Shown here piece by piece: positions 4,750 through 39,555 of a DNA stretch of 64,000 nt. This DNA comes from Aliarcobacter cryaerophilus ATCC 43158 (GTDB taxonomy: Bacteria > Campylobacterota > Campylobacteria > Campylobacterales > Arcobacteraceae). The notes beneath the pieces are model-generated. The model did not search any database. It was not told the origin of the DNA and saw only the letters and a program-made list of their open reading frames with translations. How positions within the stretch are numbered: the first letter of the stretch is position 1; every line of letters starts with the position of its first letter. Position numbers and translations under genes: made by a program. The stretch lies in assembly GCF_003660105.1 (NCBI RefSeq), contig NZ_CP032823.1:496001-560000 (forward strand), in the 5' to 3' direction.

Positions 4750-6235
4750 AATAGAGTACAACTCAACTTCTTTTTATTTTAAAAGATTAATAGATGAGTT
4801 GATAAAAAACTCAAATATAGATGCAAATACAAAACAATATGTTGGATTTATTTTAATATTTATTGATGATGAGCTTGAAAATATTGAAAAGTTTTTTTTA
4901 AATTTAGAAACAAATCTTCCTTACTCTATGTTTTTGAAAAAATCATATTTAATAGATGATTTTAATGAAGAGATTAAAGAGTTAGAAGATAAAAATATAA
5001 AAGAGAATTTTGAGATTTTAACAAATACAAAAGTTAAAGATATCTTAGAAAATTCTAATTTCGATTTTTTAAGACAAATTGTTAATTTAAATAAATATTT
5101 GGTTGTTGAATTTGAAGAATTAAATCTCTTTTTACCAAATAAAAATTTAAAAGAAAACTTTGAAAAAGAAAATTATGAAGTTAAATTAATAGTTACAAAC
5201 AGCCAAGTCTTAACAGATCTATTTATAGTAGAAGAGTCTGAAATAAATCTTTTATGTTCAATAGAGAGACCTTTGGTTAAATTGAAATTAAAAAATATAG
5301 ATGAAAATATTTCAAATAGTGGATATATTTTTACAAGGCTTGTAAACTCTTCAAAAGAGGTTGAGCTATCAAAAGCATTAAAAGAGCAAAATATTAATTA
5401 TATTTTATATGTAAATAAAAAAGATGAGTTAAAAGCTTGTAGTTTTGAGGGACTAAATCTTATTATTAGTGATGATAAAACTTTATATCCCAAATATGAT
5501 TATAAAAAAGATTTGATATTTAATTCAAGTAGTGAATATTTGAACTCTTTTTTAAATGTTTATAATGCATGTTTACATGAGAATAACCTTTTAGATAAAA
5601 ACTCTATTGGAGTATATTTTTCATTAAATTCTAAAAATAGTTTTGTGGATATAAAAGTTTTAAATGAAGAAGAAAAAAGAGTAATATATATTCCTGATAT
5701 TGAATCTAATATGAATCAAATTTTAGAAGATATATCTTTGATCGATGAAAATTGTAAAAGATTAGTGGATAATTTTTCAAAAAAGTATCTTTATACAAAA
5801 GAGATAAAACTTTCAAATAACAATGGATTTTCAACTATTATAGAAGCTATTGCAAAACTTTTAAATATACAATCAGTAAAAGATTTTGAAGATTTGGCAC
5901 TAAATAGTGGATATGTGGATGCTTTACAAATTGATATGAAATTAATTAAAATTGACAATAAAAACTATTTAGATTATAGAAAAACTATTCAATCTGTAAT
6001 GTCATATAAAATGGCAAATGTTGATAATGAGACACTTAGTTTCTCTTTTTATGAATTTTTAGGAGAATTTATAATAGATTATTTAAGGGAAATAGCAAGA
6101 AAAATAGATGTAAAAGATATAGTTTTATGTGGAGATATCTTTTCAAATAGACAAGTTTTTCATAAAGTTTATAAAGAACTTAACAAAAAATATAATCTAA
6201 TTTTACCAACAGAGTATGCAATGGATTACATATAA
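4733..6235 (+). CDS. hydE: hydrogenase accessory protein HydE, HypF C-terminal-like
   Basis: A 500-residue protein occupying the hydE position of Wolinella and Helicobacter hyd operons. The last 120 residues resemble the Kae1-like end of HypF: LCGDIFSNRQVFHKV looks like a degenerate version of the HypF LSGGVFQN motif. The N-terminal part has no recognisable domain. HydE proteins have been linked to hydrogenase maturation, but the exact reaction is not known to me. I prefer the ATG at 4733 over an in-frame ATG at 4715 because AGAGG lies about nine bases before it. It overlaps hydD by 17 bases, and its stop overlaps the hypF start. Confidence 0.75.
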   Translation: MKLIYKIEYNSTSFYFKRLIDELIKNSNIDANTKQYVGFILIFIDDELENIEKFFLNLETNLPYSMFLKKSYLIDDFNEEIKELEDKNIKENFEILTNTKVKDILENSNFDFLRQIVNLNKYLVVEFEELNLFLPNKNLKENFEKENYEVKLIVTNSQVLTDLFIVEESEINLLCSIERPLVKLKLKNIDENISNSGYIFTRLVNSSKEVELSKALKEQNINYILYVNKKDELKACSFEGLNLIISDDKTLYPKYDYKKDLIFNSSSEYLNSFLNVYNACLHENNLLDKNSIGVYFSLNSKNSFVDIKVLNEEEKRVIYIPDIESNMNQILEDISLIDENCKRLVDNFSKKYLYTKEIKLSNNNGFSTIIEAIAKLLNIQSVKDFEDLALNSGYVDALQIDMKLIKIDNKNYLDYRKTIQSVMSYKMANVDNETLSFSFYEFLGEFIIDYLREIARKIDVKDIVLCGDIFSNRQVFHKVYKELNKKYNLILPTEYAMDYI

Positions 6236-8472
6236 GTAAAAAAATAAAAGTTTACGGAACTGTACAAGGTGTTGGATTTCGACCTTTTGTATATAATCTA
6301 GCAATAAAATACAATCTTTATGGCTATGTAAATAATGATAATATTGGAGTAAATATAGAAGTATCTGGAAAAACTAATGATATTTCTAGTTTTTTAGAAG
6401 AGTTAAAAAATAATCCGCCACCTCTTGTAGTTATTGAAGATATCAAAATAGAAGATTCAAATAAACAATTTTTTGAATTCAAAATAGAAAATAGTAATAG
6501 TTGTGATAATAAAACAACTACAATTCCTCCTGATATAGCTATTTGTAAAGATTGTATAGATGATATTTTTGATAAAAACAATTTTAGATATCGTTACTCT
6601 TTGACAAATTGTACGAACTGTGGACCTAGATACTCTATAATAAAAACTGTTCCATATGATAGAATTAATACTTCTTTAAAAGATTTTTCTCTTTGTAAAA
6701 AGTGCCAAAATGAGTTTGAAAATCCAACAAATAGAAGATATCATGCACAAGCAATATCTTGTGAAGATTGTGGACCAACAACTTTTTTATATGATAGTAA
6801 ACAAACCTTAATTGCTTCAAAAATAGACGCCATAAATTTAGCTTCAAAATATATAAATGATGGAAAAATTTTAGCTATAAAAAGTATGGGGGGATTTCAC
6901 ATAATTTGTGATGCCTCAAACGATAAAACTATAATTAAATTAAGAGAGTTTAAAAAAAGAGCTACAAAACCTTTTGCTGTTATGTTTAAAGATACAAATA
7001 TTTTAAAAGAATATACAAAATATTCACAAATAGAAGAAAATATTCTAACTTCAAAACAAAGACCAATAGTTTTATTAGAAAAAAAAGAAAATCAAAATAT
7101 ATCAAATTTTGTAGCACCAAATATAAAAAAAATTGGTTGTTTTTTACCAAATAGTGCTTTACACTATCTTTTATTTGAAAACTTATCTAAGCCAATTATC
7201 GCAACTAGCGCAAATTTAAATGGTGAACCAATAATTACAACAAAAGAGGATATTTTTTTAAAACTAAATAATTTAGTTGATTTTATACTTGATTATAATA
7301 GAGAAATATTAAATAGTTGTGATGATTCAATAGTACAGGTTGTAAATGAAAAAATTATAAAACTTAGAAATAGTAGAGGATATGCTCCTAATAGTTTAAA
7401 AGTTGCTGGAAAATTTAGTAAAAAAATTTTAAGTTTAGGAGCAAATCAAAAATCAACTTTTAGTATAGCTTTTGATAATAAGATTATTACAACTCCATAT
7501 TTAGGAGATTTAGACTCTATTGCTTCTATAGAAAACTATAAAAAAACAGTAGAAAATTTGCTCTCTTTTTATGATTTTGTACCTGAAATTATAGTTTGTG
7601 ATAAGCATCCAAAATATGAGAGTACTAAATTCGCTTTTTGGCTTTTGGATAAAAATCCAAATTTAGAGTTAGTTCAAATTCAACATCACTATGCCCATGT
7701 TTTAGCAGTTTTAGCAGAAAATTCTTTAAAAGATGATGTTTTGGCATTTGTTTTTGATGGGACAGGATATGGAGATGATAAAAATATTTGGGGTGGTGAA
7801 GTTTTTATTGCAAATAAAAAAGAGTACAAAAGAGCTTATCACCTAAAATATTTTAAACTTTTAGGGGCAGAATTAGCAATAAAAGAGCCCAAAAGAGTTG
7901 CTTTATCTTTACTTTTTGATAATTTTACTCTAGAAGAGATTTTAGATTTACCTTTAGATTTTTTAAACTCATTTGAAAAATCAGAGATAAAAATTCTATA
8001 TACTCTTTGGCAAAAGAATTTAAATTCACCTCTTTGTAGCTCTTTTGGAAGATTATTTGATGCAGTTTGCTCACTTGCTAATATTCTTCATATTCAAGAA
8101 TTTGAAGGACAAACTGGTCTTTATATAGAAAATTTATATGATGAAAATATAAAAGAGTTTTTTTCTTACGAGATTATCAATAATACTATTGATTTTTCAA
8201 AAATGATAAAAGAGATTTTAAAAGAAAAAGATAAAAGAATCGTTGCTTCAAAGTTTATAAATACAGTTGCAAATATTGTTCTTGAGATATCAAATTTACA
8301 CAAAGATTTACCTATAGTTTTAAGTGGTGGAGTTTTTCAAAATAAAACTTTGGTGGAGATTTTATTAAAAAGATTTCAAAAAATTAATAGAAAGGTTTAT
8401 TTAGGAGAAAAATATAGTCCAAATGATGAATCTATAAGTTTAGGTCAAGTATATTTCCAATTAGAAAATTAA
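6232..8472 (+). CDS. hypF: carbamoyltransferase HypF, apparent AUA start
   Basis: HypF makes the thiocarbamate on HypE from carbamoyl phosphate, the source of the cyanide ligands. Domains in order are an acylphosphatase (GTVQGVGFRPF near residue 10), paired CxxC zinc fingers (about residues 105-180), a YrdC-like domain, and a Kae1-like domain with HHYAH and LSGGVFQN. No ATG, GTG or TTG exists in frame between the upstream stop at 6193 and a TTG at 6601, which would remove the acylphosphatase domain and the first zinc Cys pair. The ATA at 6232 overlaps the hydE stop as ATAA and gives 746 residues, the usual HypF length. I therefore annotate from this ATA. The gene is certain; the start is inferred. 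Confidence 0.9.
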   Translation: MSKKIKVYGTVQGVGFRPFVYNLAIKYNLYGYVNNDNIGVNIEVSGKTNDISSFLEELKNNPPPLVVIEDIKIEDSNKQFFEFKIENSNSCDNKTTTIPPDIAICKDCIDDIFDKNNFRYRYSLTNCTNCGPRYSIIKTVPYDRINTSLKDFSLCKKCQNEFENPTNRRYHAQAISCEDCGPTTFLYDSKQTLIASKIDAINLASKYINDGKILAIKSMGGFHIICDASNDKTIIKLREFKKRATKPFAVMFKDTNILKEYTKYSQIEENILTSKQRPIVLLEKKENQNISNFVAPNIKKIGCFLPNSALHYLLFENLSKPIIATSANLNGEPIITTKEDIFLKLNNLVDFILDYNREILNSCDDSIVQVVNEKIIKLRNSRGYAPNSLKVAGKFSKKILSLGANQKSTFSIAFDNKIITTPYLGDLDSIASIENYKKTVENLLSFYDFVPEIIVCDKHPKYESTKFAFWLLDKNPNLELVQIQHHYAHVLAVLAENSLKDDVLAFVFDGTGYGDDKNIWGGEVFIANKKEYKRAYHLKYFKLLGAELAIKEPKRVALSLLFDNFTLEEILDLPLDFLNSFEKSEIKILYTLWQKNLNSPLCSSFGRLFDAVCSLANILHIQEFEGQTGLYIENLYDENIKEFFSYEIINNTIDFSKMIKEILKEKDKRIVASKFINTVANIVLEISNLHKDLPIVLSGGVFQNKTLVEILLKRFQKINRKVYLGEKYSPNDESISLGQVYFQLEN

Positions 8473-38633: not shown

Positions 38634-38679
38634 TTTTTAGCTTATTTTGATAAAATCAGCAAAAAATTAAGGAAAAGAG

Positions 38680-39555
38680 ATAAAAAAGTTTAAAAAAGTT
38701 CATATAGAACTTACAAATATTTGTAATTTGAAATGCTCTTTTTGTCCACCAAAACTATTAGCAAATAAGATTATGGATTTAAATACTTTTGATAGATTAA
38801 ATTTTGAGCTAAAAGATATCACAAATGAGTTAGCATACCATATTGTAGGTGACCCTTTAGTTTTGACAAATTTAAGTGAATACTTAAATATAAGTAAAAA
38901 GCATAATTTAAAGGTAAATATAACAACAACAGCAAATAATATTTCACAAAAGCATTATGAAACTTTACTAAATACTACAATCAAGCAGATAAATTTTTCA
39001 CTAAACTCATATAATGCCAACTCTCATAAAAAAAGTTTTGATGAATACATAGAGCCTATTTTAGAGTTTGTAAAGTTTGCACAAAATAAAAAACATGAAT
39101 ATTTTATAAACTTTAGAATTTGGAATTTAGATGAGAAAAAGAGTGCAAAAGAGTTTAATCTAAAGATTTTTGATAAATTAAATCACTTTTTTTCTTCAAA
39201 TTTAAATATAGATGAGATTTATGAAAATAAACCAAAAAATATAAGAGTTGCTAGAAAAATATTTATAAATTTTGATGAATATTTTGTTTGGCCAAATTTA
39301 AAAAATGAAGTTGTAAGTCAAAAAGGTTTTTGCTATGGTTTAAACTCACATTTTGGCATTTTATCAAATGGAACTGTAGTTCCTTGTTGTTTGGATTTAG
39401 ATGCAAATATAAATTTGGGAAATATTGAGAAATCAACTATAAAAGAGATTTTGCAAGGACAAAGAGCAAAACAGATGATAGAGGGTTTTAAAAATAATAT
39501 TTTAAAAGAAGAGCTTTGTCAAAAGTGTGAGTATAGGACAAGGTTTGATTTTTAA
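38680..39555 (+). CDS. radical SAM protein with SPASM-like end, apparent AUA start
   Basis: A 291-residue radical SAM enzyme. The CX3CX2C motif that holds the [4Fe-4S] cluster is ICNLKCSFC (C15, C19, C22), followed by HIVGDPL and, at the C-terminus, a SPASM-like Cys set (CYGLN, PCCLD, CQKCEYR). The first conventional start codon in frame, TTG 38728, lies after C15 and would destroy the motif. Upstream the frame opens only after a TAA at 38668, and the ATA at 38680 has AAGGA six bases before it. I annotate from that ATA. The substrate is unknown; peptide or tRNA modification are possibilities. Confidence 0.85.
   Translation: MKKFKKVHIELTNICNLKCSFCPPKLLANKIMDLNTFDRLNFELKDITNELAYHIVGDPLVLTNLSEYLNISKKHNLKVNITTTANNISQKHYETLLNTTIKQINFSLNSYNANSHKKSFDEYIEPILEFVKFAQNKKHEYFINFRIWNLDEKKSAKEFNLKIFDKLNHFFSSNLNIDEIYENKPKNIRVARKIFINFDEYFVWPNLKNEVVSQKGFCYGLNSHFGILSNGTVVPCCLDLDANINLGNIEKSTIKEILQGQRAKQMIEGFKNNILKEELCQKCEYRTRFDF

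What the first reader, a model, noticed from the sequence alone, without database searches (positions are those of the whole stretch)
38680..38682. Radical SAM gene also appears to start at AUA, with an ideal ribosome-binding site
The CX3CX2C motif requires codons upstream of TTG 38728. The frame is closed by TAA at 38668, and ATA 38680 is preceded by AAGGA at a six-base distance. The predicted start (I/M)KKFKKVHIELTNIC is what relatives look like with Met. A second independent case in one 64-kb window argues against a single sequencing error and for real AUA initiation in this very AT-rich genome.
Basis: partly seen in the sequence, partly recalled or inferred. Interest (0 to 1): 0.75.

Follow-up and report, generated by a model that had tools for sequence, protein, structure and literature searches.

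The report
Enzyme gene with conserved AUA start
A conserved radical SAM enzyme gene in Arcobacter-like bacteria lacks a normal start codon, and about 60 related species keep AUA, AUU or AUC there behind a strong ribosome-binding site, so the odd start is an old, maintained feature and not a sequencing error.

Summary
At window 38680 a radical SAM/SPASM gene has AAGGA-N6-ATA, an in-frame TAA at 38668, and no ATG/GTG/TTG until TTG 38728, which lies beyond the first cysteine of CX3CX2C. Of 70 orthologues read in the same family (Arcobacteraceae-like), 62 have AUA (46), AUU (12) or AUC (4) at this codon. Conservation starts exactly there, and in several species a stop lies one sense codon upstream, so the codon cannot be an internal Ile. 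Elsewhere in the order the gene starts with ATG/GTG/TTG and a much weaker Shine-Dalgarno. A second gene outside the window, a small lipoprotein, shows the same pattern (28 of 30 AUH, AUG at the same codon in two relatives); hypF in this window starts at ATA in five species. A scan of 464 kb shows such starts are few and gene-specific, not a general use of AUA. Initiator tRNA (CAU) looks normal; infC starts with TTG. Most likely this is weak initiation by design: near-cognate start, strong SD, short leader. The start is inferred comparatively, without protein data. Conserved AUA/AUU starts are already known (infC, ccpN, cvfC1), so this is a new member of a known kind.

The parts
38680..39555 (+). 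radical SAM/SPASM gene, 291 codons from ATA to TAA
   Evidence: AlphaFold model pLDDT 82.8, radical SAM fold
38680..38682 (+). ATA start codon (AUH in 62 of 70 family orthologues)
38669..38673 (+). Shine-Dalgarno AAGGA, 6 nt before ATA
   Evidence: aSD duplex -6.1 kcal/mol, within the strongest 22% of the genes sampled
38668..38670 (+). in-frame stop TAA that closes the frame 3 sense codons upstream
38651..38656 (+). TAAAAT, a -10-like element 29 nt before ATA; a similar box lies at -32 to -28 in 36 of 59 orthologues
   Evidence: pattern match, not tested; the sigma-70 consensus scan did not list it
38722..38745 (+). CX3CX2C cluster motif (Cys15, Cys19, Cys22)
   Evidence: invariant columns
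38728..38730 (+). first canonical start codon in frame (TTG); it lies after Cys15 and has no Shine-Dalgarno
6232..8472 (+). hypF, the other ATA-start case in the window; ATA overlaps the upstream gene's TAA (ATAA)
   Evidence: ATA in five species, ATG one codon upstream in the nearest other relatives

Best explanation
The radical SAM/SPASM gene is translated from AUA at 38680 by the normal initiator tRNA (anticodon CAU), with a third-position mismatch. A strong Shine-Dalgarno at fixed spacing on an apparently short, unstructured leader makes this possible. Shown by sequence comparison: the coding region begins at this codon, the codon is AUH across the family, and the SD is strong and conserved. 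Inferred: the start is weak on purpose, so translation runs at a fraction of the AUG rate (about 10-30% by analogy with measured S. aureus AUA/AUU starts) and can vary with initiation stringency (IF3). This would keep a radical SAM enzyme at a low or conditional level.
For: Of 90 orthologues read across the order, 62 are AUH, all 62 in this family. In 59 core rows codon 1 is AUA 45, AUU 12, AUC 2; residues 2-15 are highly conserved with synonymous variation, while the codons two and four upstream are stops in 7 and 13 species. In L103, L051, L033, L034, L035, L016 and L017 only one sense codon separates ATH from an in-frame stop. 49 of 59 species have no ATG/GTG/TTG in any frame from -8 to +15. 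SD:anti-SD energy median is -5.55 for AUH orthologues against -1.55 for NTG orthologues. At least 11 changes among AUA/AUU/AUC on the tree, against 2 exits to NTG. The same pattern appears in a lipoprotein gene, 28 of 30 AUH with AUG at the same codon in two relatives. The N-terminal residues form strand 1 of the barrel. Precedent: conserved AUA/AUU starts with strong SD giving about 10-30% of AUG expression in S. aureus (PMC13009471).
Against: No proteomic, Ribo-seq or reporter data for this gene. The purpose of the weak start is not shown: at fourfold sites of this gene G is only 4.7%, so absence of G at the third base does not by itself prove selection against AUG; it shows that the usual pull towards AUG is missing. 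infC starts with TTG here, so the classical IF3-AUU loop is not in place. Three species have an in-frame ATG two codons upstream, too close to the SD to be a likely start.
Confidence: 0.82

Rival explanations
1. AUA is the true start but is only tolerated: a low-demand gene drifted to a near-cognate start and no regulation or selection for weakness is involved.
For: Lack of G at the third base is close to what neutral AT-rich composition gives (fourfold G 4.7%); AUA/AUU/AUC interchange freely.
Against: The state has lasted across most genera of the family with a stronger SD than NTG orthologues, and AUC appears in genus g20, placed apart from the core clade, suggesting a second origin (long branches). 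A single base change would restore AUG, yet it is not seen at this codon in 59 core rows.
Confidence: 0.3
2. The ATA is an internal Ile codon and translation starts further upstream.
For: AUA, AUU and AUC are all Ile codons, so a conserved Ile would look similar; some species have an open frame of 10-55 codons upstream.
Against: Seven species have a stop with a single sense codon between it and ATH; upstream codons show no protein-level conservation. Rejected for this gene; it was the right answer for a permease at G000:C1:98525.
Confidence: 0.02
3. Translation starts out of frame or downstream (frameshift, slippage on the A-runs, or TTG 38728) and ATA is irrelevant.
For: A-rich runs follow the ATA; TTG 38728 is the first canonical in-frame start.
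Against: 49 of 59 species have no NTG in any frame near the SD; TTG 38728 has no SD and loses Cys15 of CX3CX2C, invariant in the alignment; codons 2-15 evolve under strong amino-acid constraint.
Confidence: 0.03
4. Sequencing or assembly error, or a decaying gene.
For: None found.
Against: 62 genomes agree; the gene has intact frames in nearly all family orthologues and 75% mean column identity over 25 family members.
Confidence: 0.01

Closest known systems
S. aureus ccpN (AUA), cvfC1 (AUU) and infC (AUA) conserved non-canonical starts (PMC13009471)
   Same: Near-cognate AUH start, strong SD at suitable spacing, conserved in relatives, gene not confined to translation factors.
   Different: Bacillota; starts shown by Ribo-RET and reporters. 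Here the gene is a radical SAM enzyme in Campylobacterota, AUA/AUU/AUC interchange over ~60 species, and evidence is comparative only.
E. coli infC (AUU) autoregulated by IF3, and pcnB (AUU) (general knowledge; infC autoregulation also cited in PMC13009471)
   Same: Near-cognate AUH start that is sensitive to initiation stringency.
   Different: infC in this family starts with TTG; no link of this enzyme to initiation is known.
BtrN and other SPASM/twitch radical SAM enzymes (PDB 4m7s, 4m7t; SuiB 5v1q; anSME 4k36)
   Same: Closest by sequence (E 3.5e-7 over residues 2-104) and by fold; radical SAM plus C-terminal cysteine-rich domain.
   Different: About 16% identity in the structural match and no NCBIfam equivalog reaches its cut-off, so substrate and function are unknown.

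Membership tests
conserved non-canonical (AUH) start codon | no ATG/GTG/TTG compatible with the conserved N-terminus | tested here: met
conserved non-canonical (AUH) start codon | AUH retained at the same codon in orthologues | tested here: met
   62 of 70 family orthologues
conserved non-canonical (AUH) start codon | strong Shine-Dalgarno at fitting distance | tested here: met
conserved non-canonical (AUH) start codon | ribosomes or Met-initiated peptides detected at the codon | not testable with these tools
   no Ribo-seq or proteomics data held; the C. jejuni Ribo-seq metagene analysis used annotated ATG/TTG/GTG only (PMC11955535)
IF3-infC type autoregulation | infC itself starts with AUH in this genome | tested here: not met
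   infC starts TTG in G000 and nearly all sampled relatives
altered initiator decoding (e.g. initiator tRNA with UAU anticodon) | unusual initiator tRNA gene | tested here: not met
   two identical initiator genes with CAT; none of the tRNAs read has a UAU anticodon
radical SAM/SPASM enzymes | CX3CX2C motif and Pfam Radical_SAM plus SPASM over cut-off | tested here: met

The most novel reading that the evidence does not exclude
Arcobacteraceae carry a small, conserved set of AUH-start genes (this radical SAM gene, a lipoprotein, hypF in one group, perhaps a dozen genome-wide) that together respond to initiation stringency, i.e. a regulon defined by start-codon quality and not by a regulator protein.
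Probability: 0.15. Interest if true: 0.78.

Novelty: new member of a known kind. Interest (0 to 1): 0.56.

Why it matters
Gene finders usually allow only ATG/GTG/TTG, so such genes are cut short (here losing an iron-sulfur cysteine) or missed. A start codon kept at AUA/AUU/AUC across about 60 species, with a second unrelated gene showing the same, gives a clean natural system to test whether bacteria use poor start codons as a lasting expression control, outside Bacillota and outside the infC loop.

Tried and rejected
Fe ABC permease at G000:C1:98525 looked like a further ATA start (AAGGA, spacing 8) but relatives keep ATG/TTG/CTG two codons upstream, so it is a normal start. A TraG-like mobile gene at 469131 lacking a start near its 5' end was left unresolved. 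A strict comparative scan gave no further convincing ATH case; the codon-blind scan found only this gene. Both scans are insensitive: neither recovers the lipoprotein. IF3 autoregulation by infC AUU: not met, TTG. Unusual initiator tRNA: not found. Leader RNA structure: none, z-scores near 0. The claim that absence of ATG proves selection against AUG is weakened by 4.7% G at fourfold sites. No literature on AUA starts in Arcobacter was found.

Full report
Observation. The sequence is as described: AAGGA 38669-38673, six bases, ATA 38680, in-frame TAA 38668. The 291-codon frame is a radical SAM/SPASM protein, and the first ATG/GTG/TTG in frame, TTG 38728, comes after the first cysteine of CX3CX2C and has no Shine-Dalgarno.

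Orthologues. The window genome (G000, 2.1 Mb) is close to Aliarcobacter cryaerophilus by its named relatives. The gene matches in 100 of 104 genomes of the family at E<=0.001, the large majority of them true orthologues, and strong orthologues occur through much of the order. Starts were read in 90 orthologues: 46 ATA, 12 ATT, 4 ATC, 18 ATG, 5 GTG, 5 TTG. All 62 AUH starts are in this family, where 70 were read. On the tree (a quick search, the careful one did not finish), a core clade of 63 rows holds 60 AUH, 2 ATG (genus g6, ATG one codon upstream with GTA at the old position) and 1 TTG (G064). Genus g20 has ATC separately, on long branches. Deeper genera (g7, g8, g11, g12) and other families use ATG/GTG/TTG.

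Is the codon really the start? AUA, AUU and AUC are all Ile codons, so an internal conserved Ile had to be excluded. In L103, L033, L034, L035, L051, L016 and L017 one sense codon separates the ATH from a stop, and the codon before it varies freely (18 codons seen). Codon 1 is ATH in all 59 core rows, which were chosen as AUH rows; what matters is that residues 2-15 are strongly conserved with synonymous changes while upstream codons are not and include stops. 49 of 59 have no NTG in any frame from -8 to +15. A scan that ignores codon identity placed the start at this ATA. The N-terminus forms strand 1 of the barrel in the AlphaFold model.

Second gene. A scan of 464 kb of the genome (440 predicted genes) for coding that reaches upstream of the first canonical codon gave three credible cases: this gene, hypF (window 6232) and a small lipoprotein at G000:C1:108727. 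The lipoprotein has AAAGGA-N6-ATH in 28 of 30 relatives (16 ATA, 9 ATC, 3 ATT), and ATG at the very same codon in two. hypF has ATA in five species where other close relatives have ATG one codon upstream. A fourth candidate failed this test. So AUH starts are real but few: the genome does not use AUA as a general start.

Mechanism. The initiator tRNA genes are ordinary (CAT), so AUA is read with a third-base mismatch, the kind that IF3 disfavours (PMC10158994). The AUH orthologues have stronger SDs than NTG orthologues (median -5.55 against -1.55 kcal/mol), although the relatedness of the sequences makes that test's P value too small. A -10-like box 28-32 nt upstream is common, fitting a short leader like the ~25-nt leaders of C. 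jejuni (PMC11955535); the leader has no notable structure. In S. aureus AUA and AUU starts with strong SDs give about 10-30% of AUG expression (PMC13009471). The same is expected here, by inference.

What is not shown. No direct evidence of initiation at the codon is held. Selection for weakness, as against tolerance, is open: G is rare at neutral third positions (4.7%), so lack of ATG alone is weak evidence. infC starts with TTG, so the classical feedback is absent. The enzyme's substrate is unknown; BtrN is its closest solved relative.

Noticed in passing
window 6232-8472: hypF has no canonical start for 135 codons of open frame; ATA 6232 overlaps the upstream stop (ATAA) and is shared by G000, G005, G007, G013 and G027, while other close relatives have ATG one codon earlier.
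   Followed up: partly
G000:C1:108437-108727 (L265): Small lipoprotein gene matched in 100 of 104 family genomes starts with ATA/ATC/ATT in 28 of 30 relatives read, behind an almost invariant AACAAAGGA or AATAAAGGA; ATG in two.
   Followed up: yes
G000:C1:96966-98531 (L295-L324): Fe ABC permease start varies ATG/TTG/CTG among close relatives; several species (L296, L298, L309, L311) show CTG at the start position.
   Followed up: partly
G000:C1:469131-470990: TraG-like gene lacks a canonical start for 88 codons; mobile gene remnant or a further non-canonical start.
   Followed up: no
infC loci L143-L172: infC starts with TTG in nearly all Campylobacterales sampled, not AUU as in E. coli.
   Followed up: no
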